In this document: in pieces, positions 1 through 60,706 of the stretch | How the letters are laid out: every line of letters begins with the position of its first letter | Position numbering within the stretch: position 1 is the stretch's first letter | From: Cinnamomum chago | Lineage: Eukaryota; Streptophyta; Magnoliopsida; Laurales; Lauraceae | Length of the DNA stretch: 64,000 nucleotides | Reading direction: 5' to 3' | Assembly (NCBI GenBank): GCA_038049695.1 | Contig: CP142453.1 | Span: 35,501,501-35,565,500 of the forward strand | Program-made: the position numbers and the translations under genes | The notes under the pieces: model-generated | What the model was told of the DNA's origin: nothing | The model's database searches: none | What the model saw: the letters and a program-made list of their open reading frames with translations, nothing else

Positions 1-186
1 TTTCATAACTATTTATTCCAATGCACAACCACATTTCTATCCCATTTTGAGCCCTCATATCAATCCCTTTTGAGCCCACACCAACTTGCCTAAACCAAAC
101 AATCCAATCCACTTATCCATAACCCATTTCCAACCCAAACTCAAGCCATTGTTCTATCACTAACTTACCTAAGCCTTTCATTGCTA
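1..186. other. No gene seen
   Basis: AT-rich sequence with short C-rich words. No coding frame, RNA gene or repeat boundary could be supported. Confidence 0.5.
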
Positions 187-1015
187 TTCTTATGAAGTCC
201 CACATCGGAAAGAAATAAAAAGAGAGCAAGGCAAATGTTTCTATATAAGGAATGTAGCCCTATGCATCTGAAAGAACACAAGCAAGGAGAGACACATCCT
301 CTTTACTTAAGCTAATCATGTAATTGAGAGTATTGAAAAGAGAAAGTGAGGAAAGCCTTGTAATAATTGAAGACTTGAAATGAAAATTAAAGCTTTGTCT
401 TCTCCAATTGGTGGCTAATCCCTTTGATTGGATGGTCTGAATGAAGCCAAGTTGATGCTATTTTCTTTGCTTATTTTCTTTATCCTAATTTAATGTACTT
501 AACATGTTAGAGTAGATTTGTCTTCATTGTATTGTGCAACCTTCCATGTGTATTTTCTATCTTAGCATTCTTTTTTACTATGTGTGCTTATGTTTGATAG
601 ATTATGCTTAGGATTTAATACCCTTTGATGGTTTATGCTTACTTTTGATAAGTAGTCATTAGGGATCTTTGCTTTTATAAATGAAAGGAAGTCTTGGCTA
701 TTGGATTGTTGGTTTATTATCTTAGAGCTTTCAAGTTGTATTTTCCAAATCTAAGCATTGATTTGTCTTTAGATTTGAGTGTTTGTTTGGAAAAAAGAGA
801 AGGGCATTTGTGCTGGATTAACGACACTTTTTAAATTTTACATGCTTTAATCTATCCATTACTATTGATTGCTGCTCGTATTTGGCCCCACCTTTTATCT
901 TATCTTATTTTACTTTGATTTCATTCTATTTAACTATGTCTATTCACATTTCCACACACTTTAATTAACTTGTTTTAATTCTCACACTCCATTTTTATAT
1001 CCACCCCATCAATTC
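187..1015 (+). repeat. Dispersed repeat A, copy 1
   Basis: This noncoding block begins with a TCCCACATCGG-type word. It aligns collinearly with 12,225-12,918 and, for its first part, with 13,474-13,745. The shared words include TTTACTTAAGCTA, GGTGGCTAATCCCTTTGATT, AAGTTGATGCTATT, CTATCTTAGCATTC and TTCTCACACTCCATTTTT, with many substitutions and small indels between copies. It may be the LTR or body of an old retroelement. No protein, terminal repeat or target duplication was found, so the family is not named. Confidence 0.7.
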
Positions 1016-2796: not shown

Positions 2797-3251
2797 TAAT
2801 GTTTAATAATTATATGCAAATGACTCGACTGGGATCGAACCAGTATCCTCTTAGTAAGACTGAATTGGAAGAAAGGAAAGAAAGCGGAAGATTCACAAGT
2901 GTTTGGTATGGATGATGTGAGACAAGGGCTCACATTCTCTATTTATAGACTTTCCTACTGAATTATATTTGAAATGTATTTGAGATCCGCAATGGGATAA
3001 GATGTATACGTCATTTGCACTGTATCACTGTTGCATATAATATGCATTACTGTTGCTGCTTATGAGTGAACTGTATTACTAACTTCATTGCTGACGGACT
3101 TCATTGCTATTACTATTGCATGCATCTGACAGTCGACTGATAAATTTATTGTTGTATTCGCTGTAGGGTGCAGATTGTATTGTATGATCTGCAGAGACTG
3201 TGGTGGCTGCATGGACTTGTAGCTATATTGTTGACTTTGAATTCCAAAACT
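2797..3251. other. Flank of viral relic, no gene
   Basis: Noncoding. A short stretch at 2,827-2,845 looks like the T-arm of a tRNA on the minus strand, but no cloverleaf surrounds it. The right part, rich in CTGCA words, probably belongs to the 3' noncoding or intergenic region of the minus-strand caulimovirid half. Confidence 0.4.
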
Positions 3252-3338
3252 CTTTATTTGGAATGGTGCTTCATAGAATACTTTATTTGGAATAGTGCTT
3301 CATAGAATACTTTATTTAGAATAGTGCTCCATAGACTA
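3252..3338 (-). repeat. 3 x 29 bp tandem repeat in viral noncoding region
   Basis: Three perfectly phased 29-bp units (3,252-3,280, 3,281-3,309, 3,310-3,338), plus-strand form starting CTTTATTTGGAATGGTGC. The first two differ at one position; the third has a few changes. It lies downstream, in viral sense, of the 391-residue reading frame and its AATAAA. Tandem repeats in caulimovirid intergenic regions can be promoter elements, but that role is only inferred here. Confidence 0.85.
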
Positions 3339-3517
3339 CTATAGACCACTCTAGCTCACAAAAGTGGACTTTTGGTAGTTTTTTTTTTATATTTTTACAA
3401 ATGAGAGCATCCGGATGGACTTTGAATTGTTTATGAGCACAAGATAATGACATGTACTTATGTCTTGACTTTATGTTGTCTAGAAATTGATGGAGGATGC
3501 ATTCCTGATATAGGAGC

Positions 3518-3523
3518 TTTATT
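3518..3523 (-). promoter_or_regulatory. AATAAA poly(A)-like signal, minus-strand viral half
   Basis: AATAAA on the minus strand in the context GCAATAAAG, just after the 3' segment shared with the plus-strand half. The other half has the same word in GCAATAAAT at 11,328-11,333, at the matching place. The conserved position supports a shared 3' processing signal. Confidence 0.55.
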
Positions 3524-3527
3524 GCTT

Positions 3528-3706
3528 GCAGGACACATGGCTGCATGGGGATTGTTGTGCTGACTTGAGGACTGCATTGATAATTGCATTTTTGTGTTGC
3601 TAAATTAATACTGCATGGTAAGTAATGAAGGCTGCATTAGATGGCGAAATTCGCATTGAAATTTGCTTGATCTGTATTTGTAGGAACTGAATGTAGAGTA
3701 ATTGCT
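3528..3706 (-). repeat. Shared 3' noncoding segment of viral halves (minus copy)
   Basis: Read on the minus strand, this aligns with 11,131-11,290 on the plus strand. The first roughly 100 bases align almost without gaps (CAATTACTCTACA, then CAGATCAAGCAAATTTCAATG, then ATGCAGCCTTCAT), and the rest aligns with indels up to CATGCAGCCA. In each half it follows the stop of a different second protein. Both halves therefore end in the same noncoding sequence although their coding contents differ. Confidence 0.85.
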
Positions 3707-3719
3707 GCATGTACTGAAT

Positions 3720-4895
3720 TTAAAATTCGTCTGCACCGCCTGAAGGAGGCAGTGTTGCATCAGAATCATCTTTTTTGACAGAGCCATGCGAGGAAGATGC
3801 TTCTTGAATAAATCCGCCATATTTATTCATAAGGGGATTTCTAAGGAATAAAACTTCATTCTTCATGCGCTGAATTTCTTGGAGAAGATCCAAATGCTGC
3901 TGAGTATTGATTGGAGGTGCTGGGGATGAGGATGTACCATGTACAACATCTTTGAAGCTTTTTGGTAAAATTGTATTAGGAGTTGTTTGCTTCTTGATTT
4001 GATGATTAGCTGTATTAGGTTGTATAATAAGAGAAGCTTGAGGAGAGGAGTGATGAGATTTATTGAGAAATTGTGAAATGTCAAATTTATCCCACCATTT
4101 AATATAAGAAATACGAACAAAACATAATGGCTTCAATTCTTGGGATTTGCCGTAATCCCATCGGAGAATCCATGGAATAGTGGATGAAGTAATAAATTTA
4201 AAGAAAGTATATGAAGGTTCAGAAATTTCAAAACTGGATTGAGATTCAAATGTTTGATAATGGCTTAATAAAGCTTCTGGGAGTATGCAAGATTGTGCGC
4301 CAAAACGGAGCCACCAATTATGCCAGAACCAACGGGGAATGTTTTGATTGCATTTAGAAGAAAAGCTATTGTACCAAGAATGTGATCTTTTTGAATTTTG
4401 ATATAACAAAGTATATTCCCAAGCATTCATGTAGTCATAGTAATCATAGGGCCAAGAGCTCCCATTGGGATTGATGACAGTTTTTGGTGAGAAGAGATTG
4501 TCAGCCCAATCAGTGAGAGTATGAATGTGCATAATCTTCATTTTTGAAAAGGCATGTTCTCCATCTCTATCTTCATGAGTAATGATAACACTTTTTGTCT
4601 GAATCAGAATTGCTTCATAGTACTTGTGAGAAATATTGGGGGCTTTTGGAACAAAATGGCAATTTTTTCGGTAGAGTTTTGAGAGAATTTGATCAATTGT
4701 AAGGTTGGCATGGATTTTATCATCAAGGAAGAAAAGAGCGAATTCAAAGATCTTAATGTATTGAGATTTTTTGAAAGGACTGGAACGATAGGGTGTTTGC
4801 AGCATGGGAGAAGGATTTAAGGCATTGAATTTATTGTTGGAAAGAATATTAAGTGTATCAATGACTGGATTTTTTCCTTTTCCTCTTGGATGCAT
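3720..4895 (-). CDS. Second ORF of minus-strand caulimovirid half, function unknown
   Basis: An open frame of 391 codons with no stop. Its ATG lies inside the last codons of the upstream reverse-transcriptase polyprotein, whose frame ends at 4,858, giving an overlap of about 38 bases. The protein has a basic start (HPRGKGK), a tryptophan-rich middle (WFWHNWWLRFG near residue 190, and WDYGK and WWDKFDI further on), a Ser/Pro/Thr-rich linker, a short heptad-like helix near residues 335-355, and an acidic end. I do not recognise a characterised domain. Position after RNase H fits a viral second ORF. It is not related in sequence to the second ORF of the other half (9,968-11,113). That it has stayed open while neighbours are broken is notable, but expression is unknown. 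Confidence 0.7.
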   Translation of the reverse strand: MHPRGKGKNPVIDTLNILSNNKFNALNPSPMLQTPYRSSPFKKSQYIKIFEFALFFLDDKIHANLTIDQILSKLYRKNCHFVPKAPNISHKYYEAILIQTKSVIITHEDRDGEHAFSKMKIMHIHTLTDWADNLFSPKTVINPNGSSWPYDYYDYMNAWEYTLLYQNSKRSHSWYNSFSSKCNQNIPRWFWHNWWLRFGAQSCILPEALLSHYQTFESQSSFEISEPSYTFFKFITSSTIPWILRWDYGKSQELKPLCFVRISYIKWWDKFDISQFLNKSHHSSPQASLIIQPNTANHQIKKQTTPNTILPKSFKDVVHGTSSSPAPPINTQQHLDLLQEIQRMKNEVLFLRNPLMNKYGGFIQEASSSHGSVKKDDSDATLPPSGGADEF

Positions 4896-6975
4896 CTTTG
4901 CTCACCTTGTTTCTACCCTGTAGAAATTCACTAGATAGAAAATCGGGAAGAGAATTTGAAGAGCCTTTTATATATTCAATGTCGAAATAAAAAATAGCAA
5001 GTAAAGCTTGCTAGCGAGCAAAAATTTGTTTTGATGCAAGGTTTTTGACATCATTTTCCAAAACTTCTTTTATAGATTTGCAATCAATTCGTAAGAGAAA
5101 TTTTTGATTCAAAATATCACCTTGAAATTTGAGTATGCATGAGACTATGGCAAGGACTTCTTTCTTTATTGTAGAGTAATTTTGTTGAGTAGCATTCCAA
5201 GTGCCAGAATAAAATCTAATAATTTGTTCCTTTGACTGTGCAATTCTTTGAAGTAGGATTCCTCCAAATCCTATTTCAGAAGCATCTGTTTGGATTATTT
5301 TAAATAAATCTGGATTTGGAATATTTAAGCATGACTATGATTTTACTTTTTGTTTTATTTTTTGTATTGCTTCTGTATGTTGAGGAGTCCATTGTTTTGC
5401 TGAATTTCTTAAACATTTTTGTTAAAGATTTCTTTCTTTAGAGAGGTTTTGATAAAGATCGGATACATAATTTAGACATCCTAAAAATCTTTGTAATTGT
5501 TTTTTATCTGTTATTTCATCAGGGAAATTGTCAGCAAATTTGATTACTCTGTCAACAGGAGTTATCATTTTATTTGATATTTTATAACCAAGAAATTGTA
5601 TTTCTGTTTGGAAAAGTTTTATTTTTCTTTGAGAAAGGACTAAGCCATTTTTCTTTATGATCCATTTGAAAGTCTTTAAATGTTTCCAGTGATCATCAAT
5701 GGATTTAGAGAAGATTAAAATATCATCAATGTAAACAATTGAGAAATTTTTATAAGGGTGAAAGATTTCATTCATCATTTCTTGAAAGGCTGAAGGAGCA
5801 TTTTTTAGCCCAAAAGGCATGACATTCCATTCATAATGGCCAAAAGGAATAGTAAAGGCGGTTTTATAGTGATCTTTTTCTTCAACCTGTATCTTCCAAA
5901 ATCCTGATTTGAGATCAAATTTTGAAAATATAAAGGCTTCATATAAACGAGTAATAAGATCTTGTTTATTGGGAATTGGATATCTGATTGATTGAAGGAC
6001 TTTATTTAATGGTTTATAATTGATGACGAGGCGAGGAGCCCCTCTTTCTTTTTCAGGAGCATTTTCAACATAAAAGGCTGCACAACTCCAGGGAGAATGT
6101 GATTTGCGGATTAATTTCTTTTGAAGTAAATCTTTAATTTCTTTATCACATAATTCTAACAGTCTAGGACTCATTTGAGATGGCCTTGCTTTAGTAGGAA
6201 TATCTCTTTCATTAAAAGTAGAAATATATGGTAAGGATACTAAATGTTTGTTTCTATGCCAAAACGCAAAAGGTATCTCAGAACAACATTCTTTTATTAG
6301 AGAGGTTTGGAAATTATTAATTTTAGTTTCAAATGCTTTTGATTTTAACTGATCCTCAATTTGACAGAGATTAATGTCATTTTTAAGATTTTCAATATAT
6401 TTTTCTTTATTAGATATGAGTAGGTTTATTTGATTGATTTTTCCAAGATTTGAGAGTATAGAAACAGGTTGAAAACTAAGATTAGAAGTTTTTTCAGAGG
6501 ATTTTGCTTTAAGAAATTTTTTTAGAGTAGTAGTATTTATAACATCAATGATGAATTTGTCGTGAGCACTTAATACGTTTATTGATGAATATGAGGGATG
6601 TAATTCATTATTTTCTTCTTGATCAGAGATGTTTTCTTCTAGATGAGGTTGTGAAAGTAATGTTTTAGAGGTGGAATCTTTTAGGAAGGATTTGTTTATG
6701 GGAGTTGAATATGAAGTTGCATTTAATGTAGTAGTATTTGACTCTTTTGTAACTAGATTGAGAGTAGGTTGCGAGAAAATATTTAGTAAAGAATTATTTA
6801 TGTCTTTATGCTTTATAGTTTCTAAAGAGGGGTGAACAGATTCAACTTTACCTTTCTCGGTTTCCCATGTTTGTGTGGATTTATTAATTGTCATCATTAC
6901 AGTTCGTTTTTTATTTATTTTTGACGAAAGCCAATCAAAGAAAGGGATATTTCGCCGTTCTTGATACTCTAACAT
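4858..6975 (-). pseudogene. Endogenous caulimovirid RT-RNase H polyprotein, decayed
   Basis: One continuous frame of 706 codons broken by three in-frame stops, at 5,422-5,424, 5,335-5,337 and 5,011-5,013, with no frameshift seen. The first 517 codons are open. Reverse transcriptase motifs are clear: the SPW and VINYKPLN region, FDLKSGF, GLKNAPS and the catalytic YIDD. RNase H follows, with TDASEIGFGG, KEVLAI and RIDCKS. It would copy viral RNA into DNA. The N-terminal part matches the region shared with the plus-strand half, then moves through an INVLSA linker straight to the end of the protease region (LGKI). Coat-protein core and aspartic protease are absent. RT type and the following overlapping ORF indicate Caulimoviridae, probably a florendovirus-like lineage; genus is inference. 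The ATG at 6,975 is at the junction and is probably not the original start. Confidence 0.9.
6815..6964 (-). repeat. Inverted repeat arm 1: shared 5' coding segment of viral halves
   Basis: 150 bp, the reverse complement of 7,243-7,392 with about five mismatches by eye. Both arms encode the same polyprotein stretch (RRNIPFFDWLS, then STQTWETEKGK). The similarity stops sharply at 6,815, beyond which the two halves encode different protein. In this arm the frame is open where the partner has two stops. Confidence 0.95.
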
Positions 6976-7798
6976 TCATCCTACAGGCATAGCATTCCCT
7001 GTCTATACAGAAGCAAAATATGAAGATATACAATCAGTAAAATTAACTGAATCAGACTTTGATGCCTCAATCAATACAATCTCCTTGATTCATGAACCCA
7101 ATGAAGAAATACATGATTTCAAAATTGATAAACAATTCCTTCAACAAGATTTATTAAAACATCCAAAGACAAAATGGTTTTTTACCAAATTCTCTAAATT
7201 TGAGAGATCTCAAGTAAAAGAATTGTGGAATGAACAAATGAATCAAGAACGGCGAAATATCCCTTTCTTTGATTGGCTTTCATAAAAAATAAATAAATAA
7301 GGAACTGTAATGATGACAATTAATAAATCCACACAAACATGGGAAACCGAGAAAGGTAAAGTTGAATCTGTTCACCCCCCTTTAGAAACTATTAATGCCA
7401 CTCCATTTAAAAATGCTCTACCGACCTCTAAAATCCTTACTGTTGAACATTTATCTCATCTAGTTGAACAAAGGAACTTTACAAATCTCTATTTACAAAC
7501 TATTGGTTCACAAACTCAAAGAATTGAAAATATTATATCTCACCAAGAATTAAATTCATCATCTCAATATAAAATATCAAGGGATGTTCCCTCATTATGT
7601 TCCGACTTTATTACAAAATTAACTTTAGATAAAAAGCCATTAAAACTCCCTGCTGACTTTCAAAATGACATTTCGTTACGAATCAATCCTCTTGATAAAG
7701 GTAAATCAATAAATGAAGGTACCTCAATTAATGCAGTTGTTGAAGGACCATCAATTCAAATGTTGCTGGAAAGAAGAAGAAGAGAGCTCCACCATTGA
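6976..7798 (+). pseudogene. Plus-strand caulimovirid half: movement-protein tail and linker
   Basis: Reading starts abruptly after the head-to-head junction (HPTGIAFPVYTE), without a start codon. It continues through the shared 5' segment and a Gln/Asn-rich linker to 7,798. Two in-frame TAA stops at 7,283-7,285 and 7,298-7,300 break it. In caulimovirid polyproteins the movement protein precedes the coat protein, so this is interpreted as the end of that region; the conserved movement-protein core is not present. The linker has a possible coiled segment around 7,440-7,560. A frameshift near 7,790-7,803 separates it from the coat-protein frame. Confidence 0.65.
7243..7392 (+). repeat. Inverted repeat arm 2: shared 5' coding segment
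   Basis: 150 bp, partner of 6,815-6,964 in opposite orientation; the 278-bp spacer (6,965-7,242) belongs to the plus-strand half only. The arms are closer to each other (about 97% by eye) than the shared 3' segments are. Either the segment is more conserved or the arms have been homogenised by conversion. Confidence 0.95.
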
Positions 7799-7803
7799 TG
7801 TAG

Positions 7804-9133
7804 TTGTTGAAGGACCGGTCAATGCAACAGTCTCCACCATTGACATTTGATCAAAGATCAATGCCCAACCCCAAAACTCATACATCAAAAACAAAAAATT
7901 ATTACAGTAGACCCACTCCAATGAATCTCCAATTTGAAGAAATTCCTGATATAGCAAATTGTAAATATGATGGTAGTTCATTAGTAGAATGGAATATTGA
8001 TGGACTTACTGAATATGGAATTCTTAATATTCTGCGAAACATGATCCTCTATACGAATGCAGGCATGATCTATGGCAATACACAAGCTAAAATCATTAAA
8101 TCAATCATAATAGGATTTACATGCCAACTTCATGGCTGGTGGGAATATTATCTAACCTCAATTCAAAAAACTAGTATTCTAAATTCCGTCAAAATAAATG
8201 AAGAAGGCAAACCCATTCTTAATACCAATGGCCACCCAATTTCTAATGCCGTTGAAACACTAATTCATAATATTTTAATCAATTTTTCTGGAAATGTTAG
8301 CGATCAAATAGAAAAGTATAGAGAACAATTAATCAATCTACGATGTCGGACTTTATCTGATTTCCGATGGTATAAAGATGTCTTTTTATCCCTTGTTTTT
8401 CAATTATTCAATTCTAATGAAGATTTTTGGAAAGAAAATTTTATTTTTGGCCTTCCAACTCATTTTGCAGAAAAAGTAAAAAAATGTTCTAAGAGAACAA
8501 AATAATGGACGATTAAATTATGCTAACTATACATATGGTGATTTAATTCAAAAAATTTCTCGTGTTGGTATGTCTATTTGCAGTGATATGAAAATTAAAG
8601 CTGATTTACATAAATAAAAGAAAATTGGTAAAAAAGAATTAGGGGATTTTTGCTATCAATTTGGCTATGAACCCCTACAAAATCCATCTAATCGAATTTA
8701 TCAAACTAAACATCGGTCTAAAAAGAAAAGATATAATGAAAAATCATATCGATCCTATAAAAATTACAAAAATTATAAAAAAGGAAAACATGAAAAAAGC
8801 AATTCAAAGAAGCGAAAATCCAGCTCTTCTCCAAAACATAAAACTAATAAATCTGATTATACCTGCTATAAATGTGGCAAAGAATGACATTTTGCAAATA
8901 ACTGTTTTAATAAAGATTCAAAAAATAAAATCAATGAATTAGATTATCATTCTTATAATTCAGAAAATGACAAAGATATCTGTATATGTTGCGAAAGCGA
9001 CGAAAGTTCTTATGATTCTTCCTCTTCATCCTCTTATTTTTCAATTAATGTTTTAAGTGCTCAAGATGAATTACCTCTGGAATTAATAGAAAACATTTCC
9101 TCTGAAGAAGAAAAGAAAAAATATTATAGAAAA
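7804..9133 (+). pseudogene. Caulimovirid coat-protein region with zinc knuckle, decayed
   Basis: The frame at 7,804-8,505 carries a capsid-like domain (FEEIPDI, WNIDGL, GWWEYYL) typical of pararetroviral coat proteins. A frameshift in the A-run near 8,476-8,483 moves the reading to the next frame. That continues through a TAA at 8,615-8,617, a very basic Lys/Tyr/Ser stretch and a CCHC zinc knuckle (CYKCGKE, stop, HFANNC). The knuckle glycine codon has become TGA at about 8,885. After it come an acidic Ser-rich stretch and INVLSA, the linker motif also present in the minus-strand half. The domain would package nucleic acid. Confidence 0.8.
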
Positions 9134-9872
9134 ATGCTTGAAGATAAATCTACTGACAAAACCTCTAAGAAAAATAAAGATTTTCAATCAATTTCTATGA
9201 AAGATATTCTTTCCCAAAAACCTAGCGCTTCAAAACCTTTAACCCTTCAAGATCTCCAAAATAAAATTAATGAAACAAAACATGAAATTGAAAAATTAAA
9301 AGAAGAAGCATCTAAAGAAATTGCTAAATTAAAAAAAAGAATAGAAATCCTTGAATTAGGTAAAGAATTCAGCTCAAATAATCAAGAAGATTCTAATCTA
9401 GAAAAAGAATTTGACGAAGAAATTCAAGAATTCATAAATTCCATTACCAAATATCATTATCATAAATGGTATACAACTGTAACTTTAAAAATCAAAGAAT
9501 TTAATTTATCTGTTGACTGTTTAATTGACAGCGGAGCAGATGTAAATTGCATCCGTGAAGGATTAATTCCAACAAAATATTTGGAAAAAATAAAAAATTA
9601 CACTATTGGCACTGCAAATGGAAAGAATATAATAGTCAATTATAAGATTCCAAATGCTCATATCTGTAAAAATTGAAAATGCATTCAAACTTCCTTTTGC
9701 TGTAACAAAAACATTAACAAATGATGTCATCTTAGGGACGCCCTTCTTATTAAAAATTCAGCCATTTTCTGTAAATACCAATAGAATTTATACATTAATT
9801 GATGATAAGCCTATACAATTTAAATTCATAGAAAGCCCAAGGCTTGGAAAAGTAAATGGAATTACTATTTAA
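9134..9872 (+). pseudogene. Caulimovirid aspartic protease, frameshifted
   Basis: A charged helical stretch (about residues 35-75 of the 9,134 frame, Glu/Lys heptads) precedes a retropepsin-like domain with the catalytic motif LIDSGAD and the flap-side VILGTPFL. A frameshift near 9,665 moves the end of the domain into another frame, which closes at 9,870-9,872. The reading stops at the point (LGKV) where the minus-strand half enters its reverse-transcriptase region (LGKI). No reverse transcriptase follows on this strand: the next frame is the unrelated 9,968 ORF. Confidence 0.85.
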
Positions 9873-9967
9873 TTGCATACATCTTCATATTTCCAAAATG
9901 CAGTTTCATTGCATCAATAAAGATTTTTCATAACTAATTTAATTCCTCTTCCCCTAGGGAACTAGTC
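9873..9967 (+). other. Intergenic spacer in plus-strand viral half
   Basis: 95 bp between the end of the protease frame and the next ATG. It is AT-rich with no feature recognised. No trace of reverse transcriptase is visible, so if RT was deleted the deletion is clean. Confidence 0.6.
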
Positions 9968-11113
9968 ATGTCTTCTAAGGATAAATGCAAACAACCCATA
10001 GATTCTGATAAAGCCTCTGTTCCTGTTAATGAAGAACTACCTTTTCAAATACCTTTTCCATCTTTCTATCCAGCACCCTCTGCTGCTTCTCAAACCCTTA
10101 TTGATAACATTTGGAGTGCATGCCTTACTGGCCAATGTAATTTTCTAATGCGAAAGCACCTTTCTGATTTGTCCAATCATATCAAATATTTGGAATAAAA
10201 AATTCAAATGCTTGAACAACAATGTGCATCGTCATCCCTCCCTCTAATTGAATACAGACAACAAATCCTGGAAAGGGTTGATACTCTTCTTCCGGATGAT
10301 TTAACTGCAAGAATTAGAGAGGAAACTCTCTCTTGTCAGATCATGGAGCGATTAATTAATCAAGCATCCTATCTCAGCTGGGCCACTGGATTTCCAAAGA
10401 TGTTCTTATCCGCTGAAGAATTTGATATTTCTTCTATTGAACAAGGTCTAGTTCATCGATTCATTCTCGATAGAGATAATTTAGCAAATCATCGACAGTT
10501 GCCTGCAATTGTCAAATATTCTCTCAGTTGCCTTAGTATTACCAAGCGCAATCTTCTCATGACAATCTCTTCCACTCTTAGTGAAAGAGATGAATTCCAA
10601 TTTTATCAACCATATCAATTATGGATCATTATGAATTATGAAGACGGAGATTTATTTTGTCAAAAATACAGTGTTCCAATCAATGATTATGAACATCTTC
10701 CTGATCGAAATTGGAATCAAGCAGAACAATTTGAATCCTCAGATGTTGAAGATCTCAGTTACAGCCAGAAGCGTCTACAATTCTACAATATTCAAGCAGA
10801 TCAAAATCAAAGATTCATCAATCTCAAAAGACATCTTGAATTCGCCCGTACTGTTAAGGGTCTCTGGAGCGATGGTCGTCGCGTTGTATGCATTGATGAA
10901 GATCTTGCAGACGATACATTCGTTTATTATGATCCCTTTCGAGCTGGTCATACAGTCCTTGATGAAATTCTCGAAACATTTCAAGATGCATCGTCTCTTC
11001 ATGTTACCGAAAAAACAAAGAGACAGCTTATCAAGCTCTTCCAAAGAGAAAATGACTATGGAATATGGACTCCCAGTCCACAACCACTAGATTACTACCT
11101 CATAAATGATTAA
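9968..11113 (+). pseudogene. Second ORF of plus-strand caulimovirid half, one stop
   Basis: A single frame of 382 codons including the terminal stop, interrupted only by TAA at 10,196-10,198. The first 76 codons are Pro/Ser-rich, then comes a short coiled stretch, then a folded-looking 301-residue part with many aromatic residues (FQFYQPYQLWIIMNYEDGD near its middle, and YGIWTPSPQPLDYY at the end). I recognise no characterised domain. It occupies the same place as the 391-codon ORF of the other half, immediately before the shared 3' segment, but shows no sequence relation to it. It could be a transactivator-like or component-specific protein; that is inference only. Confidence 0.65.
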
Positions 11114-11130
11114 AATCCAGCACACATTCA

Positions 11131-11290
11131 ACAATTACTCTACACTTAGTTCTTACAACTGCAGATCAAGCAAATTTCAATGTGGATTTTGCCATCAAAT
11201 GCAGCCTTCATCAACCCCCATGTAGAATTAATTCAGCAATACATTTTTAATGAAGTCCCAACAATTATTTCCCATGCAGCCAAGTGTCTA
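11131..11290 (+). repeat. Shared 3' noncoding segment of viral halves (plus copy)
   Basis: Partner of 3,528-3,706 (minus). It begins 18 bases after the ORF stop, and alignment is best over the first roughly 100 bases. It shows that the two halves share 3' as well as 5' sequence. Confidence 0.85.
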
Positions 11291-11327
11291 GCCATAAATT
11301 CATATCATGGAAAACTCACTTCTAAGC

Positions 11328-11333
11328 AATAAA
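11328..11333 (+). promoter_or_regulatory. AATAAA poly(A)-like signal, plus-strand viral half
   Basis: AATAAA in GCAATAAAT, at the position corresponding to the minus-strand half. A second AATAAA lies at about 11,397-11,402. Confidence 0.5.
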
Positions 11334-12224: not shown

Positions 12225-12918
12225 AGGAGATGAAGAATTGCCTCCTCTTTACTTAAGTATTTATGTGATTGAGAGAAATTGTAGAGAGTGCGATGAAAGC
12301 TTTGTAAAAAATTGAAGATTTGTAATGAAAGCTTTGTCTTTCTTCAATGGGTAGCTAATCATTTGATTGGATCTTCTAGATGATGCTAAGTTGATGCTAT
12401 TCCTTTTGCTTATGCTCTTAATTCCCATTGTTTATGAGCTTAACATACTAGTATAGATTTTTCTTCATTGCAATGTGCTACCTTCCATGCTTATTTTCTA
12501 TCTTAGCATTCTTTTTACAGTCTATGCTTAGGTTTGATAAATCATGCTTAAGAGTTAATATCTTTTAATGGTTTATGCTTACTTTTGATAGATAGTCATT
12601 AGAAATTTTTTCTTTTATGAAGGGAAGAAAGTCTTAGCTATTAGATTGTTAATTTCTATCTTAGAGCTTTAAAGCTATATTTTTTAAATCTAAGCATTGA
12701 TTTGTCATTATAGATTTGAGTATTTGTTTCGAAAAAGAGAAGAGCATTAGTGTTGGATTAGTGTTACTTAGTGGATTCTAGATGGTTCAATCTATCAATT
12801 AGTATTGCTTGTTGCTTATTTTACTTACTTTAGTTAGATTCTATTCACATTCCCACACATTTATATATTCACTTATCTTAATTCTCACACTCCATTTTTC
12901 CATTCATACCATCAATAT
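12225..12918 (+). repeat. Dispersed repeat A, copy 2
   Basis: Collinear with 187-1,015, lacking the first few dozen bases. It ends where the left arm of the large inverted repeat begins. Confidence 0.7.
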
Positions 12919-13300
12919 GAGTTTACAAAAGATACACTTTCATAACATTTTTTTATGAGCTTTCAAAGATAAAAGAACTCAAAACACTATTTTTAGCATA
13001 AAAATCATAAATTTCCTACCCATCATGCTTTGCTCATATTTTTCCATTATAGATGGCCATTTGTATGCATTTATATAAGTTCCAATGGCTTTCATACAAA
13101 ATATGTTCGAAAATACTCTCAATTATGTTAATTTCTCTTTGAAAGTGTTAATTGAAGATTAAAGTTGATATTCAAGAGTCAAAGAGAGTAAGGATAAGTT
13201 TGGAAGACAATGGGATAAAGAAATGACAAAGTTAGGCCAATAATAAGAAGAAAAATGAAGGACCCGGGTTGGTATTTTAACCATATTTTTTTACTCGGGT
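12917..13300 (+). repeat. Large inverted repeat, left arm
   Basis: About 380 bp whose reverse complement is at 13,747-14,124, diverged but alignable throughout. Matching words include CAAAAGATACACTTTCATA, AACTCAAAACACTATTTTTA, ATGCTTTGCTCATAT and TTGAAGATTAAA. No coding capacity. It may be two repeat units in opposite orientation or a foldback element. Confidence 0.85.
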
Positions 13301-13473
13301 GTCCAATTGAGGTGAACTCAAAAGCATTGGAAAGTTTGTTCTAAGATTTACAAATCATATTGGACAACATTTTTCCCAATTCGGACGTTTCCGAGGTCAA
13401 AATCGCACATCAATCTGAGAACTGTTTTCTAACACAGGAATCTTATTCATATGTTCATATTTCTATTCTTGTG
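13301..13473. other. Spacer between repeat units
   Basis: Noncoding. It contains TCGGACGTTTCCGAGGTC-type sequence seen in many plant repeats; no family assigned. Confidence 0.4.
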
Positions 13474-13745
13474 AAGTTCCACATTGGAAAGAAACCAAAA
13501 GTGAGCAAGGCAAATGTTTCTTTATAAGAAAGGAAACTCTAGGCATTAAATACACAAGCAGGGAGAGCATCCGCCTCTTTACTTAAGCTATTCATGTAAT
13601 TGAAAGTAATTGGAGAGAGAAAGTGAGGAAAGCTTTGTAAAAATTGAAGATTTGGAATGAAAGATTTCTCTTCTCCAATGGGTGGCTAATCCCTTTGATT
13701 GGATGTTCTAGATGAAGCTAAGTTGATGCTATTTCTTTTGCTTAT
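13474..13745 (+). repeat. Dispersed repeat A, copy 3 (partial)
   Basis: Matches the first roughly 290 bases of copy 1 (CCACATTGGAAAG, GTGAGCAAGGCAAATGTTTC, TTTACTTAAGCTA). It stops abruptly at 13,745, directly against the right arm of the inverted repeat. Confidence 0.75.
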
Positions 13746-13746
13746 G

Positions 13747-14124
13747 GTCAAAATACAAATCCAGGTCTTAAATTTTTCTTCTTATTATTGGTCTAACTTT
13801 GTCATTTCTTCATCCAATTGTCTTCCAAATTTATCCTTACTCTTTTTAACTCTTGAATCTCAATTTTAATCTTCAAATCAATCTCCAATTAACACCTACA
13901 AAGAGAAATTAACATAATTGAGAGTATTTTCGAACATATTTTTTATGGAAGCCATTGGAACTCAAATAAATTCATACAAATGGTCATTTATAATGGAAAT
14001 ATATGAGCAAAGCATGATGGGGAGGAAATTTATGATTTTTCTGCTAAAAATAGTGTTTTGAGTTCTTTTATCTTTGAAAACTCATAAAATAATGCTATGA
14101 AAGTGCATCTTTTGTGAACTCATC
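13747..14124 (-). repeat. Large inverted repeat, right arm
   Basis: Reverse complement of 12,917-13,300. The 446-bp loop between the arms holds repeat A copy 3. Confidence 0.85.
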
Positions 14125-15640: not shown

Positions 15641-15654
15641 CACTACAACAAACT

Positions 15655-16310
15655 GCACTTTTAGCGACGAAAGTTTTCGTCGCCAAAAGTCAAAAAATCG
15701 TCGGTAATATTTTTACCGACGAAAATTTTTTCGTCGGTCAGACGTCGGTAACAATCGGTGGACAAAACCTTTTCCCGACGAAAATTATTTTCGTCGGTAA
15801 AAATATTAAATCTTTACCGACAATTAAACCAAGTATAAAAATTAAAACACTTTTACCGACGTTTATTTTCGTCGGCAAAATAAAAAGGAAAAATAAAAAC
15901 GCCTATACCGACGTTTATTTTTCGTTGGCAAATAAAAATAAAAATAATAAAAAAAATTTACCGACGGTATTTTTCGTCGGTAAAAATCAAATTAAAAATA
16001 CAAAAGGTTTTACCGACGGTAGTTTTCGTCAGTAAAAATCAAATTTAAAAATAAAAAAATTATACCGACGTTTATTTTTCGTCGGCACAAAAAAAAAAAA
16101 ATTTAAAAACTTTTTGCCGACGATATATTTTCGTTTATAATTTATCGATGTTTGCCGACGTATAGATTTTTATCGATGTTTGCTGACGTATATTTTTGTC
16201 GGTAAAAAATCAAATTAAAATTTAAAAACTTTTACCGACGTTTTATTTTCGTCGGCAAAAATCCATTTTACCGACGTTTTTAATTTTCGTCGGTAAAAGT
16301 CTTTTTTTTT
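15655..16310. repeat. CACTA-1 subterminal repeats, 3' end
   Basis: Some two dozen copies of CCGACG or CGTCGG arranged as imperfect palindromes: TTTACCGACG, a T-rich centre, then CGTCGGTAAA, separated by A-rich spacers. In En/Spm such motifs are the binding sites of TNPA, which brings the ends together. Several copies have CG to TG or CA changes, as expected from methylated cytosines. Confidence 0.92.
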
Positions 16311-22893: not shown

Positions 22894-25800
22894 CTACATG
22901 TCATATTCCATGTCATCATCTTCTTGACTATGAACATCATTTTCTTCTTCATCTTCGTACTCCGCCAATGTTTCATCCTCATCTTGGCCATCATTGTCTA
23001 CCGACTCATCACTGAGAACGATGTCAGGATCTATATCATCCCTAGAGTATTGGACACTAGAACCATCGACGAGGACTGGGACAACAAACGTCGTTTCATC
23101 TTGTTGAAATGCATCATTAGGCACATCATCGGCGTCGTCGTCGTCATCCTGTTTAGCGGGTACATCCCATACTCCACGAGGCTTGACCCGTTCTACGACT
23201 CTCCAATTTTTTCCTTTACTGGTGTCATTGACATAGAAGACTTGTGTCACTTGACTTGGCAGGACAAATGGATCTTCCGTACACCAACGACCTGTGATAT
23301 CAATGCTTGTAACATGGTCTTCGATGTTTATCTTGTGCTTGGTACTAGTGTTGTACCATTCACATTCAAATAAGACCACGTTACCCCCGTGCCGATAGGA
23401 CAATTCCCAGACTTTGCAGATATAGCCATAGTAGTCATGTTTCACCCCGTCGTATTCCCCTTCCACGACCAAGCCGCTACTCTGGCTCCTACGACACTTC
23501 TCACGGTCTATAGTGTGGTATCGGACGCAATTGCAATCACACCCCTGGTAAAGATTCACCAGGGATCTAGGGCCATTTGCTAATGACCACATCTCATCGG
23601 AAGCTTCCGGTGACCCTAGAGTTTGCAATTGATTCATCTACATAAGAAGATTAAGACAAATGTTATTTGAAGTGTAATCCAATAATATCTAGCAATTAAA
23701 ATGATAATATTTTATATGTCTTACACGTTGTTTAAACCATCCTGCAAATTCTTTTCATTGTATCTGACCAACATCTCCACATCTTTGATCTTGCATTGAA
23801 TTCTTGTGTTCCCTACTCAAGATAGCTTCCAATGAATAAGTAAAAGTAGACACTGAATAAATGAATTAACAAGCAATGTATAAATATGGTTAGATTGAAG
23901 CACATACTGTAGATACGGCTCCACCTCGGGGCAATTATTCAGCACAACCATGTCACGCTCTCTTTGAGAAGGATCGTGTGCCCTTGGCAGCAGTCCGATG
24001 GGACGGACAATTTGTGTGAAGATCGACATCCCCGGGCCACGATCGCCACCATCATCATAACGTTGTACTTGATCAGTCTGCCTTAAATACATTGAGCAAA
24101 AAGTGAGGCACTCTTTGACAATGTAAGCCTCGGCGATCGAACCTTCAGGCCGAGCTCGGTTGCAAACGTACCCTTTTAGGGTCTTCAGAAACCTTTAAAC
24201 AACTAGTGATAACAATTACGATTTTCAATGCACGGAAATTTCACTAATACATAAATAATTAATCAATGGTCAACAACTATTACCTTTCTATCGGGTACAT
24301 CCATCGTTATTGCACCGGTCCGCCAAGTATGGCCTCGCGTGGCAAGTGAACCGATAGATGAACCATCACATCAAAGAAAGTTGGAGGAAAAATCCTCTCC
24401 AGCTTGCACAATATTAAAACTATCTGCTCCTCCAATTTTTTCAAATCATCGTGTCTCTGTGTTTTCGAACAGATGTCTTGGAAAAAGCTGCCTAACTCAA
24501 ATAATGTTGTACAAATGTCCTTATTCAGAAAGCCGCGCATGCCAATAGGAAGGATGCGTTGGATAAGGATGTGGCAATCATGGCTCTTTAAACCAGCTAA
24601 TTTATCATTTTTCTCAAGAGATTCACCGCATAGCCGTCTGGGTATTTGATTGACTTCAAAAATTCATAAAACCCATCTCTATGTTTTGGTTCCAGAGTGT
24701 AAGAGGCACGCGGCTTCAAGCTGGATCCATCGCCCCTCTCCACTAGATGCAGCTCTGGCCTGATGCCCATATTCTTCAAATCCTTACGTGCTTTATCAGT
24801 GTCCTTGTTTTTGCCCTTTATGCCCAAAATTGTTCCAACCAAAGATACACATATGTTCTTCTCAATGTGCATAGGATCAAGGTTGTGTCGGAGTTTTTTG
24901 CACTTCCAGTAGGGCCATTCGAATATGATGCTTTTCTTTGTCCAATTCAGTTCTCCAGAGTCAGGTGGTCTTTTGTTATTCTTGCCAAACTTGACCGGCG
25001 CTAGTTCTTCTAGCTGGTCTAGTACCTTTTTCCCCGGTAAATCCAAAGAATTCTTTTCAAGCTCAGGCTGACCGTTGAAGGCCTTGCTTCTACGCCATTG
25101 GTGGTTCAGTTCTAAGTATTTTCGATGGCCAATGTACCCAATCTTATCTTTCAACTTCACCCCTAACGAGCAGTCGTTACACGAGGGGCAAGCGTTATAA
25201 CCTTTAGTGCTCCACCCAGACAAGTTACCATACGCTGGAAAGTCATTTATTGTCCACATCACAGCCGCATGCATTTGAAATGTCTGTTTAGTGGAGGCAT
25301 CATAAGTCGATACACCATGATCCCACAACTCCTTCAACTCATCAACCAAGGGCCTTAGATATACATCGATATCGTTTCCCGGTGAGTTTGGTCCTGGAAT
25401 AAGTAATGACATCATCAAGAATGGCTCCTTCAAGCACATCCATGGTGGCAAATTATAGGGCATAAGTATGACAGGCCACATGCTATAAGAGGTGCTCATG
25501 TTACCGAAAGGATTGAATCCATCGGTGGCTAACCCCAGCCTCACATTACGTGTCTCTTGGGCAAACTCTGGATATTTCTTATCAAATTCTTTTCATTCCA
25601 CTGAATCAGCCGGATGCCGCGCTATCCCATCGTCAACGCGCTTATCACGGTGCCATCTCATCTCTGTGGTTGTCTTCCTTGACATATACAATCTGCGTAA
25701 CCTCGGTATCAATGGGAAGTAACGGAGCACCTTATGAGGGATCTTCTTTCGTTTGCCATCATTGACCTTATACCTAGGCTCTTCACATTCTGGACATTTA

Positions 25801-26468
25801 TCCAATTGAGCATTCTCCTTCCAATACAACACACAATTGTGTTTGCAGGCATCTATGTTCTTGTATCCCATGCCCAAGTCACGTAATAATTTCTTCGCCT
25901 CGTAAACTGAGGCCGGCACCACATGACCTTTGGGTAAGAAGTCCTTAAAAATCTGCAAAACCTTGTTGAACGACTTGTTGCTACACCCACTTTCTACCTT
26001 CACATGCAATATCTTAATGACAAACGATAACAGAGTATCTGAGCTTTTGCATCCTGGGTACAGGCCACGCTGAGAAGCCTTCAACAAACTTTCAAAATCT
26101 TGCACATCATCCCTCTCTTGAGTATCTTCATCCAAGTAAGTTCCCCTACGATGGTCCTCTATCAACTCATCGTATTCATCCTGATTATCTTCTGATTCAT
26201 CATCGCTCTCATCCGAATCATCGGGTTGAACTAAAGGTTCCCCGTGCAATATCCACCGTAGGTATGTGACCATCATTCCATGAATGTGCAAATGAGTTCT
26301 CACGGTTACATAGTCTTGCTTCCGATGGTTACAGTAATCGTTACACGAGCAGGTAATCAACACTGCCCCGGGGGAATTCGCCTTTGCAAAATCAATAAAT
26401 GAGTTCACACCAGCTATGTACTCAGCACTAAATCGGTTCCGATAATGTAATATCCAACTCCTGTCCAT
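22894..26468 (-). pseudogene. TNP2 transposase of CACTA-1, decayed
   Basis: Start set at the conserved MDRSW (26,468), although an in-frame ATG lies 15 bases upstream. The first exon runs to 24,284 and carries the N-terminal association domain, an acidic linker, Cys-rich motifs (CNDYCNH; CPECEEPRY) and the transposase core (LGLATDGFNPFGNMS, MCLKEPFLMM, CPSCN). The DUF4218 region (FPPTFFDVMVHLSVHLPREA) follows. Next are exon 24,192-23,908, an exon near 23,815-23,730 and a last exon to 22,894 with DUF4216 and a long acidic tail. Breaks: TGA for Trp at 25,593-25,595, a frameshift near 24,620, TAA at 24,307-24,309, and a TGA in the short exon near 23,758. The family cuts the element at its ends. 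Four breaks make it inactive as it stands. Confidence 0.93.
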
Positions 26469-28181
26469 ATCTGACCTAATCACAAGTAATTAGAAATTAT
26501 AAAAAATGGGTCAGTCCTTGTATTCTTATTATTCATGCTATTATTCATGCATTTCTTACCTAATCTAACCAAAATGAACCAGCAATAGAAAATGCATGTT
26601 TGGAGACACAATGTTGAACATTGGTTAAGGATCTATGCACGAATGCCATAGCTATGTTCAGGTGATAATCTTTTCCTCTAAACTCAGTTTTTGCTTTTCT
26701 AGTTAACATATTATACAAAATGAATTAACTTGCCTCTCTTTTGGATGGTGGTATTTGCAGGTTATTCCATATTGCATCTTTTTGCGACAAGTATCAAACG
26801 TTAGAAGATGAATTGAAGAAGACAATGGAGAAAGCTAACAATTTTGAAGAAAAAACCACAATTAAAGTGCTTTTGATGGGATTTTTTATTTTTTTTATTT
26901 TTTTTTATTTTTTTTCATTTTATTTTTTTTATTTTTATTTTTTTATTTGTTTTTAGAAATGAGGCTTTACCTTACTTGACTCTACAAGTAGAATTGCCAA
27001 ACAAGCCCTAAAGATCACGTGAATCTCCTTTTTTTAGCTTAATTGAGACTGGGTTGCCTTGTTTGAGGAATTGAGATTTTGTATTTTTTTTTCCTTTCAT
27101 ATTCAGCGGATTCCCATTTGAGTGTGTGTTTTTCTGTCTATGGGCAGAGAATTCTTGTTAGACCGAGTGCTAAGATATCACACAAGCCATAGATGTGTAG
27201 GTTCATACTCGAAACATGATACTTTTTTGCATTATCCAAGCATCATGAATCACTTCACTAGCAGCAAGCATATATTTTATATGAATGTACAATTCATGTG
27301 AACATGAATATTAATTATTTCTTTCTGAATATAGTGGGGATTTATGATTCTATTGATGAATGCCACCATGCGCTCTAGAGATTAATTGAAAGCTTTTCAA
27401 TCAAGGGAAGGATGAGTCGTGTTTGGCAATCTTTTGCCTGATACAAATTACTTGAACAAGAGCAATGCTCTTTCTGGCTGTGCATATGGTACCATATGAG
27501 CATCACCTCTTACAGTTGCAAATGTCAGTAAATTCCCATACTCAGTTGCCCAACCACCCACCTTAGCAGAAGAAAAAGAAGAAGAGAGAGAATGGACCAG
27601 GAAAGAAGAATAGAAGGAAGAAGGGTAAGACTAGTATTCCAGTATGAAGTTGATGTAAGATGAGACATTTGAGAGAGATATAGAACCACCCAACTGGTAC
27701 TTCCCACATCTCAGAACTGAAGGATAAATATTGGGCTCACAATGGTGCAATGTTATTAGCTAATAATATATTTGAATTAAGCAAGAAGAAAAGAGCTTTA
27801 CAACCTAAAGAAGCATGGGCAGGATAACATGTCTTTAACAATTAATAGGAACAATGTTCATTCCCAAGCCTTCATACAGGAGGGCTATTGTTTAGATTAA
27901 TGATAGACAGTAAAATCTTGAATATGAGTTAATACTTTGAAAGTAGTGATTTGATGATATCCGGGTCACAAACAAATATGCATTACAGCGGTCTGGTTTC
28001 CATTGACAAGAGCACGTGGCACAGTAAAAAGTGCTCACTGTTGCAACTTTAAGGTAGTGGGTTCAAGTATTGTTACAAATCGAGGGAAGAAAAGAAAACA
28101 ATAAGAAGTAAAGATTCGGATATCTGTCCTGGTGCTGCCTAAACTTCTATGTTAGAGGAGGATTAGGGACTTCCTAAGCAC
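26469..28181. other. CACTA-1 sequence upstream of TNP2
   Basis: Expected to hold the 5' leader and intron of the element's transcript. It contains a T-rich low-complexity run at 26,880-26,956. No coding exon recognised; short open frames have biased composition. Confidence 0.45.
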
Positions 28182-58491: not shown

Positions 58492-60706
58492 AAGAAGTGA
58501 TCATGGAGGTGAATTTGAAAATACAAAGTTCAAAAAATATTGTGATAAGTATGGAATTCACCATGAATTTTCTGCCCCTAAAACTCCTCAACAAAATGGT
58601 ATTGCTGAAAGAAAGAATCGGGTCTTACAAGAAATGGCCACAGTTATGCTTCATGGAAAGAATGTTCCTAGAGATCTATGGGCCGAAGCAGTTAGTACAG
58701 TATGTCACATCATAAACAGTGTATACTTGAGAACTGACTTGGATAAAACTGCTTATGAATTATGGCATGAGAAAAGACCTAACATTAACTACTTTAAAAT
58801 TTTTGGTAGCAAGTGCTATATACTCAAGGACAGAGAACACTTGAGCAAATTTGATTCTAAAAGTGATGAAGGCATCTTCATTGGCTATTCTCAAAACAGT
58901 CGTGCCTATAGAGTATTGAATATAAACACTGGAGCCATACAAGAATCCATAAATGTAGTCATTGATGACAAACCAAATGATTTCAGTCATCAAGAAAACC
59001 CTGATAATGATGAGATAAATGTCCCAACTGAAAAACTGGATGAGTCTCCAATCTCCAAGGATTTGGTAAATGTGAAACATCATTCTATGGACCAAATTCT
59101 GGGAGATCCTTTGGCTGGTGTCAAGACTATAAGATAATTAGAAAACATTGTTAGCTATCTTTGCTTTACTTCTACTTTTGAACCTAAAAATGTTGATGAA
59201 GCTTTTTCTGATGATAATTAGATAAATGCCATGCAAGAAGAGTTAAATCAATTCGCTAGAAATGAAGTTTGGGATCTAGTGCCTAGACCTGATGACAAAA
59301 ATGTTGTAGGTGCCAAGTGGATTTACAAAAATAAACTTGATGAAAATGGTATCATTGTTAGAAACAAGCCCAGGCTGGTTGCTCAAGGGTACTCTCAAAT
59401 TGAAGGAATAGATTTTGAAGAAACTTTTGCTCCCGTTGCTAGACTTGAATCCATTAGAATTCTTCTTGCCATTGCTTGTTCTTTAAATTTTAAACTATAC
59501 CAAATGGATGTCAAAAGTGCTTTTCTAAATGGTATCTTGGAAGAAGAAGTTTATGTTGAGCAACCCAAAGGGTTTGAAGACCCTAAGAAACCTAACCATG
59601 TGTATCATCTTAGAAAGGCTCTCTATGGTCTTAAACAAGCCCCTAGAGCTTGGTATGAAAGACTAACTCAATTCTTAATTGATCAAAGCTTTGAAAGGGG
59701 TAGTGTGGATAAAACTCTCTTTATTCAAACAAATAATAATAAAATTTTGATTGCTCAAATTTATGTTGATGATTTAGTGTTTGGATCTACTTGTAATGAT
59801 CTCACAGAAAAGTTTGCTAATCTTATGAAATCTAAATTTGAAATGAGCATGGTTGGTGAATTTAATTTCTTTCTAGGATTACAAGTTAAACAATTGTCCG
59901 ATGGAATTTTTATTTCCCAAACCAAATATACTAAAGAATTAATCAAAAGGTCTGGATTAGATTCAACCAAGCACATGAACACACCCATGAGCACAACACT
60001 CAAATTATCTAGGGAGTCGAGTGGTGAGAGTGTTGATTCTAGTTTGTATAGGAGCATGATAGGCAGCTTATTATATCTTACAGCCAGTAGACCTGATATT
60101 GCATTCGGTGTAGGAGCTTGCGCCAGATATCAATCCGATCCCAAAGAAATTCATTTGAAAGCTGTTAAAAGAATCATTAGATATGTTTTAGGGTCTTCAG
60201 GATATGGCTTATGGTATCCATATGACTCATCTACCTGCATTACTAGATACTCAGACGCCGATTGGGCTGGAAATGTGGATGATAGAAAATCTATAAGCGG
60301 TGGGTGTTTTTACCTAGGAAACTGTCTTGTTGGCTGGCATAGCAAGAAACAATCATCCATCTCCTTATCTACAGCTGAAGCAGAATATATAGCAACTGGT
60401 AGTGGTTGTACTCAAATGCTCTGGATGAGACAAATGCTCAAAGACTATGGTATTGAACAGTGTAGCATGAACTTGTACTGTGATAACACTAGTGTTATCA
60501 ATATCTCCAAAAATTCCGTCCAACACTCTAGAACCAAGCGTATCGATATTAGACATCATTTCATTAGAGAATTGGTTGAAGAAGGAGTCATAGTTTTGGA
60601 GCATATTCCTACAGAAAAACAACTTGCAGACATTTTAACAAAACCCTTGGATGTTTCCAAATTTGAAAATATGCGAAAATCCCTTGGTGTTTGTGATATT
60701 GGATGA
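58492..60706 (+). pseudogene. Copia pol, second part (integrase end, RT, RNase H)
   Basis: Continues the interrupted frame. Integrase resumes with the second catalytic region (SDHGGEFE, then PQQNGIAERKNR with the catalytic Glu). TAA at 59,135-59,137 and TAG at 59,219-59,221 (a Trp codon position) break the frame. From 59,231 reverse transcriptase and RNase H are open for 491 codons: [36 protein letters not shown], then RNase H with YSDADWAG and STAEAEYIA. Order protease-integrase-RT-RNase H is the copia order. Four stops plus the 14.7-kb insertion make it inactive. Confidence 0.95.

What the first reader, a model, noticed from the sequence alone, without database searches (positions are those of the whole stretch)
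3528..11333. Both parts of a bipartite endogenous pararetrovirus, fused head to head
The minus half has RT-RNase H and no coat or protease; the plus half has coat and protease and no RT. They share a 150-bp 5' coding segment, a 3' noncoding segment and a matching AATAAA, yet carry unrelated second ORFs. Different cargo between common ends is what a two-component genome looks like. Some florendoviruses have been proposed to be bipartite, which is rare among retroelements. Sequence sharing is seen directly; bipartite status is inference. A rearranged single-component genome is the alternative.
Basis: partly seen in the sequence, partly recalled or inferred. Interest (0 to 1): 0.88.

Follow-up and report, generated by a model that had tools for sequence, protein, structure and literature searches.

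The report
Two-part integrated plant virus
This stretch of a plant chromosome holds broken copies of both halves of a virus whose genes seem to have been split over two circular DNAs, a layout proposed before for only a few viruses of this kind, and the same plant carries better-preserved copies of each half plus an older relative split in much the same way.

Summary
The minus half (6965 to about 2827, longer than stated) is a component A: MP-linked segment, reverse transcriptase, RNase H, ORF2-A. The plus half (6974 to about 11312) is a component B: MP end, coat, zinc finger, protease, ORF2-B. They meet head to head across 8 filler bases. The host holds both layouts as separate tandem units: A 5.77-5.80 kb (ORF1 about 1121 codons), B 6343 bp (open ORF1 of 1289 codons in 22 listed copies). 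They share MP (95.8-99.3% nt), intergenic region (89-93.5%) and a tRNA-Met primer site. All 24 RT stretches examined follow the A spacer, none coat or protease; no listed coat match lies in a frame above 1298 codons. RT, coat, protease and both ORF2s show dN/dS 0.05-0.22. An older virus (MP 63% nt from the young one) is split in much the same way; its one known A copy and four B copies share MP at 94-96%. ORF2-A and ORF2-B show no similarity, unlike the Vitis case. So: a new variant of the bipartite florendoviruses of Geering 2014. Two genome scans did not complete, so a rare monopartite copy is not excluded.

The parts
2827..3722 (-). component A 3' noncoding / intergenic region, ending about 10 bases before the primer-motif position of its relatives
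   Evidence: blastn to A units L014, L021, L012; end compared with L021
3720..4895 (-). ORF2-A, 391 codons, open, no Pfam family above cut-off
   Evidence: 89-90% aa to open copies in L021 and L014
4861..5397 (-). RNase H region of ORF1-A (frame broken by stops)
   Evidence: tblastn 91% over 181 aa to the L021 piece
5398..6297 (-). reverse transcriptase region of ORF1-A
   Evidence: Pfam RVT_1; 96% over 300 aa to the L021 piece
6298..6811 (-). A-specific spacer between MP and RT; keeps a short linker like the one before the protease of B
   Evidence: (blastp E 6e-5)
6812..6965 (-). shared 5' coding segment, A copy
   Evidence: inverted repeat, 96%
6966..6973 (.). 8-base filler at the head-to-head junction
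   Evidence: homology to the components ends on either side
6974..7241 (+). 3' part of the movement-protein region, B copy
   Evidence: tblastn 93% to the MP piece of L021; DUF7588
7242..7395 (+). shared 5' coding segment, B copy
7396..8505 (+). pre-coat and coat region of ORF1-B (frame broken)
   Evidence: DUF7746 and weak caulimovirus coat domain; 87-100% aa pieces to L025
8506..9133 (+). zinc-finger and linker region of ORF1-B
   Evidence: blastn to B units; the matching piece of L025 has zf-CCHC
9134..9872 (+). aspartic protease region of ORF1-B (frame broken)
   Evidence: Pfam RVP
9968..11113 (+). ORF2-B, about 382 codons, one in-frame stop, no Pfam family
   Evidence: tblastn 89% over 397 aa to L025
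11114..11312 (+). component B 3' noncoding segment, similar to that of A

Best explanation
The locus is a compound integration of the two genome components of one extinct or unsampled bipartite caulimovirid of florendovirus type. Shown: component A carries MP, RT, RNase H and ORF2-A; component B carries MP, coat, zinc finger, protease and ORF2-B; both have nearly the same leader, primer motif and MP. Inferred: each component was a circular DNA transcribed from its own intergenic region; B supplied coat and protease and A supplied RT in trans; the pregenomic RNA of each was packaged and reverse-transcribed from the shared tRNA-Met site; template switching during reverse transcription kept the shared leader-MP block alike. 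Broken linear forms of both were joined and captured together during chromosomal break repair, which gives head-to-head and head-to-tail A/B loci like this one.
For: Separate tandem copies of A (5770-5798 bp) and B (6343 bp), each with the primer motif. 24 of 24 RT stretches follow the A spacer, 21 with MP in view, 0 follow coat/protease; of 7 coat stretches 5 lead to protease then ORF2-B and 2 run off the stretch. Upstream of ORF2-B in 20 further loci: 19 have the protease end, 18 of them without RT or RNase H. MP 95.8-99.3% and intergenic 89.0-93.5% between A and B; the block at 95% or more is about 2 kb long. The MP/leader tree mixes A and B; B as one clade is rejected, p-AU 9e-6. dN/dS 0.07-0.22 for RT, ORF2-A, coat, protease and ORF2-B, window against young copies. 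Old lineage: 5 of 5 fetched loci (of 7 listed) have B layout; MP of its one known A copy is 94-96% identical to MP of four B copies. 9 of 17 A-bearing stretches also hold B pieces; two of the 17, L011 and L042, were chosen as the array's ends.
Against: No free virus, transcript or two-component infection is shown. A/B recombinants exist (C1:4.33M: RT-RNase H joined to the protease end and ORF2-B; C2:102.04M), so recombination and deletion do make new forms. The single old A copy still has a protease, so the split was not identical in the two lineages. One of 16 intergenic A/B pairs falls below 90% (89.0). dN/dS was not checked against a decayed control.
Confidence: 0.86

Rival explanations
1. 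B, or both forms, are defective deletion derivatives of a monopartite florendovirus that served as helper; they were then copied as chromosomal DNA.
For: Relatives with protease before RT in one protein exist in other plants, e.g. Prunus protein P0009. Deletion forms do get amplified here: the 4131-bp array unit lacks 1667 bp with the primer site.
Against: No monopartite copy seen in the capped lists: open frames with coat reach at most 1298 codons, with RT 1131. Coat, protease and ORF2-B have dN/dS about 0.2. The old virus has the same B layout with its own MP. ORF2-B has no detectable counterpart in A.
Confidence: 0.1
2. One rearranged single-component genome: the two halves are pieces of one virus inverted on integration.
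For: Inverted joins are seen at several of these loci.
Against: The two halves duplicate the MP-linked segment and the 3' noncoding segment, carry different second ORFs, and each recurs elsewhere as a unit in head-to-tail tandem.
Confidence: 0.02
3. Two unrelated viruses that integrated side by side.
For: ORF2s show no similarity.
Against: MP 95.8-99.3% and intergenic 89-93.5% identical between A and B; the MP tree mixes the components.
Confidence: 0.02

Closest known systems
Bipartite florendoviruses (Vitis vinifera B and D viruses, Oryza sativa B virus, Sorghum bicolor virus; Geering 2014, PMC4241990, passages seen)
   Same: Component A with RT and ORF2, component B with MP, coat, protease and no RT; near-identical intergenic region and MP; compound A/B loci; many copies.
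   Different: Here ORF2-B is a separate frame with no detectable similarity to ORF2-A (in Vitis it is a C-terminal extension homologous to ORF2; in Oryza and Sorghum the ORF2 homologues are called more divergent). No protease was found in the young A, and two diverged viruses in one host share the split. In the RT trees it does not group with the Vitis MP+RT protein P0117, whose status as a component A is my inference.
Monopartite florendoviruses (e.g. Lotus japonicus A virus, named in PMC4241990; Prunus protein P0009 has the protease-RT order, its filing here is inference)
   Same: Same domains and an ORF2 after ORF1; RT about 70% aa identical to P0009.
   Different: Domains on one molecule there, on two here.
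Petuvirus (Petunia vein clearing virus; known here only from passages of PMC4241990)
   Same: MP, coat, protease, RT and RNase H made as polyprotein.
   Different: The text gives it no second ORF; two components with an ORF2 each here.
Bipartite begomoviruses (recalled, no call)
   Same: Two circular DNA components that share a common region.
   Different: Single-stranded DNA, no reverse transcription, much shorter common region.

Membership tests
Florendovirus (tentative genus) | MP, coat with zinc finger, aspartic protease, RT and RNase H all present | tested here: met
   met by the two components together, not by either alone
Florendovirus (tentative genus) | second ORF after ORF1 with no known homologue | tested here: met
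   ORF2-A about 393 and ORF2-B 391-397 codons, no Pfam family above cut-off; homology to reference florendovirus ORF2 not tested
Florendovirus (tentative genus) | RT inside the florendovirus clade, apart from petuviruses and solendoviruses | tested here: inconclusive
   RT nests among plant and unnamed proteins, several with protease-RT order, but no row was labelled to genus
Florendovirus (tentative genus) | tRNA-Met primer site in the intergenic region | tested here: met
   recalled 12-base motif, exact or with one mismatch, in A and B units; absent from the window copy and from the four array stretches
Bipartite florendovirus | separate components A (RT, no coat) and B (coat and protease, no RT) | tested here: met
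Bipartite florendovirus | MP >87% and intergenic region >90% identical between components | tested here: met
   MP 95.8-99.3%; intergenic 15 of 16 A/B pairs 90.5-93.5%, one 89.0%
Bipartite florendovirus | compound A/B loci | tested here: met
   the window; 9 of 17 stretches
Bipartite florendovirus | ORF2-like part of B homologous to ORF2 of A (Vitis form) | tested here: not met
   blastp nothing; hhalign probability 0.1%
Bipartite florendovirus | two components replicate together | not testable with these tools
   no episomal or transcript data
Petuvirus | single component without a second ORF | tested here: not met
   two components, each with an ORF2

The most novel reading that the evidence does not exclude
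The split genome is not a short-lived accident: an obligate two-component retro-virus lineage lasted through at least one deep divergence (MP 63% nt, RT 77.5% aa over the longest piece, ORF2-B about 60% aa), keeping A and B locked together by repeated exchange of a 2-kb leader-MP block in each descendant, while A lost its protease stepwise and B carried an ORF2 of its own.
Probability: 0.58. Interest if true: 0.75.

Novelty: new variant of a known kind. Interest (0 to 1): 0.62.

Why it matters
Bipartite florendoviruses were proposed from reconstructed sequences; their authors called them possibly unsuccessful attempts and could not exclude a helper virus (PMC4241990, passages). Here both components survive with open frames in unit-length repeats in one genome, tested genes of both show constraint, and an older virus in the same host is split in much the same way. 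That makes the question of whether a reverse-transcribing virus can live stably as two DNAs directly testable by comparing related host species.

Tried and rejected
Structure prediction of ORF2-B (5-row alignment, mean pLDDT 39) and ORF2-A (single sequence, 33.5) gave no usable model, so no fold search was run. Protein search with ORF2-A: 1127 candidates, none significant; with ORF2-B: 4 relatives of 645 candidates. IMG/VR scans with the RT frame and with the ORF2-B alignment found no relative. An 8-base match near the outer ends had no chance control and is not claimed as a target-site duplication. Rejected: one inverted single genome, and two unrelated viruses (see rivals). A second batch of 20 upstream checks could not be fetched. 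In the MP tree the window copy and stretches cut off by a locus end were left out beforehand; of the 39 that fitted, 10 exact duplicates were merged, L019, L026, L032 dropped as truncated, then L012_2408, L018_8968 and L017_8730 dropped as truncated or long-branched, leaving 23; the 26-row tree before the last step also rejects B as one clade, p-AU 4e-7. The first RT tree used 68 of 125 rows, the second 43 rows: own copies, named proteins and the best-scoring hits. In one search the old A RT is one uninterrupted match stretch of 120 residues only.
Full report
What is there. Minus strand, from 6965 down to 2827: MP-linked segment, spacer, RT, RNase H, ORF2-A, noncoding end. Plus strand, from 6974 to about 11312: end of MP, pre-coat, coat, zinc-finger region, protease, ORF2-B, noncoding end. 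Between them lie 8 bases outside both matches. Both sides are cut at the 5' side in the MP-linked region, so primer site and MP start are missing from the window copy. The A copy ends about 10 bases before the place where its relatives carry the primer motif.

The two layouts elsewhere in the host. The RT frame finds 83 matches, the 83 scored of 13,630 candidates; 68 of the 83 lie in one array on C4. ORF2-B finds 132 matches and the coat piece 151; the tool calls such counts lower bounds. In 10-kb stretches component A appears as MP, spacer, RT, RNase H, ORF2-A, intergenic region, repeated head to tail at 5770 bp (L014) or 5798 bp (L021); component B appears as MP, pre-coat, coat, zinc finger, protease, ORF2-B, intergenic region, repeated at 6343 bp (L025, whose ORF1-B has a stop). 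Coat matches without a stop and in a 1289-codon frame are also spaced 6343 bp, e.g. on C2, C3 and C12. ORF2-B hits are also spaced 5657, 5803 and 5000 bp; the 5803-bp set at C1:4.33M looks like an A/B recombinant. Neighbouring units differ by 0.07% (A, L021), 0.4% (A, L014) and 1.0% (B, L025) in the compared parts. In one search, 22 listed coat matches without a stop lie in a frame of exactly 1289 codons, and the longest listed frame is 1298; the longest frame with RT is 1131. Geering 2014 gives 205-216 kDa for a monopartite polyprotein (passages), which would need well over 1700 codons (inference).

Order of domains. Of 24 RT stretches of 800 bases or more in 17 stretches (the 16 and L042), 21 are preceded by MP and A spacer in the same direction, 3 by A spacer alone, none by coat or protease; 10 of the 24 are in or at the ends of the C4 array. 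Of 7 coat stretches of 600 bases or more in these and L025, 5 lead to protease then ORF2-B; 2 run off the fetched stretch. In 20 further ORF2-B loci, 19 have the protease end directly upstream; 18 of these show no RT or RNase H in the 801 bases fetched; one (C1:4.33M) is RT-RNase H joined to the protease end; one has no match.

Common block. Over four A and four B intergenic regions identity is 89.0-93.5%, 15 of 16 pairs above 90%; over the MP stretches A against B is 95.8-99.3%. The block at 95% or more is about 2 kb: from about 200 bases before the primer motif through the leader and MP. A and B are intermixed in the MP/leader tree of 23 rows (17 A, 6 B); holding B together is rejected, p-AU 9e-6. 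The simplest cause is exchange by template switching (inference).

Selection. Against young copies the window's RT, ORF2-A, coat, protease and ORF2-B have dS 0.18-0.26 and dN/dS 0.07-0.08, 0.17, 0.18-0.21, 0.19 and 0.22; young strains against each other give 0.05 (RT), 0.12 (coat) and 0.09 (ORF2-B). No decayed control was run. So most of the difference probably arose while the virus was replicating, in genes of both components. A cannot package without coat and B cannot reverse-transcribe without RT; complementation in trans is the inference.

An older virus with much the same split. Seven ORF2-B matches are only 59-68% identical. I fetched five of the seven: all five have MP, coat and protease pieces before ORF2-B and no RT match in 4.3 kb; they are decayed. 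Beside one of them (C6:47.44M, L041) lies an old component A: primer motif, MP, protease, RT, RNase H, no coat match. MP of this A and of four old B copies is 94.4-95.8% identical, against 63% to the young virus (68-69% for the one short copy). The protease of the old A is far from that of the old B; all these proteases group apart from those of one-piece relatives (95/92), with the inner order unresolved: old A with old B 80/60, all B together not rejected at p 0.07. RT of old and young A group together (96/64, not firm), with two unnamed proteins (99/98), away from the Vitis MP+RT protein. This suggests that the split is older than the divergence of the two viruses. It rests on one old A copy, which could also be a monopartite copy that lost its coat; the protease distance argues against but does not settle it.

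Second ORFs. ORF2-A and ORF2-B show no similarity (blastp; hhalign probability 0.1%). ORF2-B has relatives in four other database proteins, 57-80% identical; ORF2-A found none, by a tool that needs shared five-residue words. Neither has a Pfam family above cut-off or a usable structure model.

Known work. Geering 2014 (PMC4241990, passages) proposed bipartite florendoviruses in Vitis, Oryza and Sorghum with A/B compound loci; a 2023 review (PMC10377300, passages) adds beet and says that the bipartite ones do not share a latest common ancestor. CAULIFINDER (PMC9719215, passages) reports reduced sensitivity for B components. PMC9794742 (passages) reports large sets of identical endogenous RT copies in other plants, e.g. 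Capsicum, so high copy number is not new. PMC13308828 (2026) was seen only in passages. In the listings (titles and abstract starts, open-licence papers only) I saw nothing on unrelated ORF2s or on two diverged bipartite viruses in one host; the beet paper itself was not seen.

Verdict. The finding is correct and of a known kind (bipartite florendovirus-like), but unusually well preserved, with a B component that carries an ORF2 unlike that of A and an older virus split in much the same way. 

Noticed in passing
G000 C4:70,878,029 to at least 71,270,999 (L009, L010, L023, L024; left end L011, region past the right end L042): Giant tandem array of a 4131-bp deletion form of component A (ORF2-A cut, 1667 bp with the primer site lost); 68 units listed, about 94 by spacing over the listed span; five compared units 99.83-99.95% identical. 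Without the primer site it was probably multiplied as chromosomal DNA.
   Followed up: partly
G000 C1:4,327,200-4,331,180 (L027, L051) and C2:102.04M (L017): A/B recombinants: MP-spacer-RT-RNase H joined to protease end and ORF2-B, and RT-RNase H joined to ORF2-B.
   Followed up: partly
G000 C6:13,693,225-13,718,225 (L043): Component B deletion form repeated at exactly 5000 bp, six listed starts; 99.9% identical over the 1100 bases compared.
   Followed up: partly
window 180-1013 and 12324-13760: Direct repeats, 70-89% identical, flank the viral locus at about 11.9 and 13.3 kb spacing, with further inverted repeats at 12917-14123; the virus may lie in an older repeat.
   Followed up: no
window 15645-15993: Four 52-bp direct repeats, 65-75% identical to the reference copy, with a short palindrome-like core.
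   Followed up: no
window 22897-26483 minus: CACTA-type transposon remains: tnp2 transposase, transposase-associated domain, DUF4216.
   Followed up: no
window 40998-43496 and 58634-60703 plus: Copia retrotransposon gag and pol pieces; Transposase_32 at 61222-62169.
   Followed up: no
host genome contigs: 8 of the 9 contig lengths shown are exact multiples of 2500 bases (C6 is not), which points to padding or rounding in the assembly.
   Followed up: no
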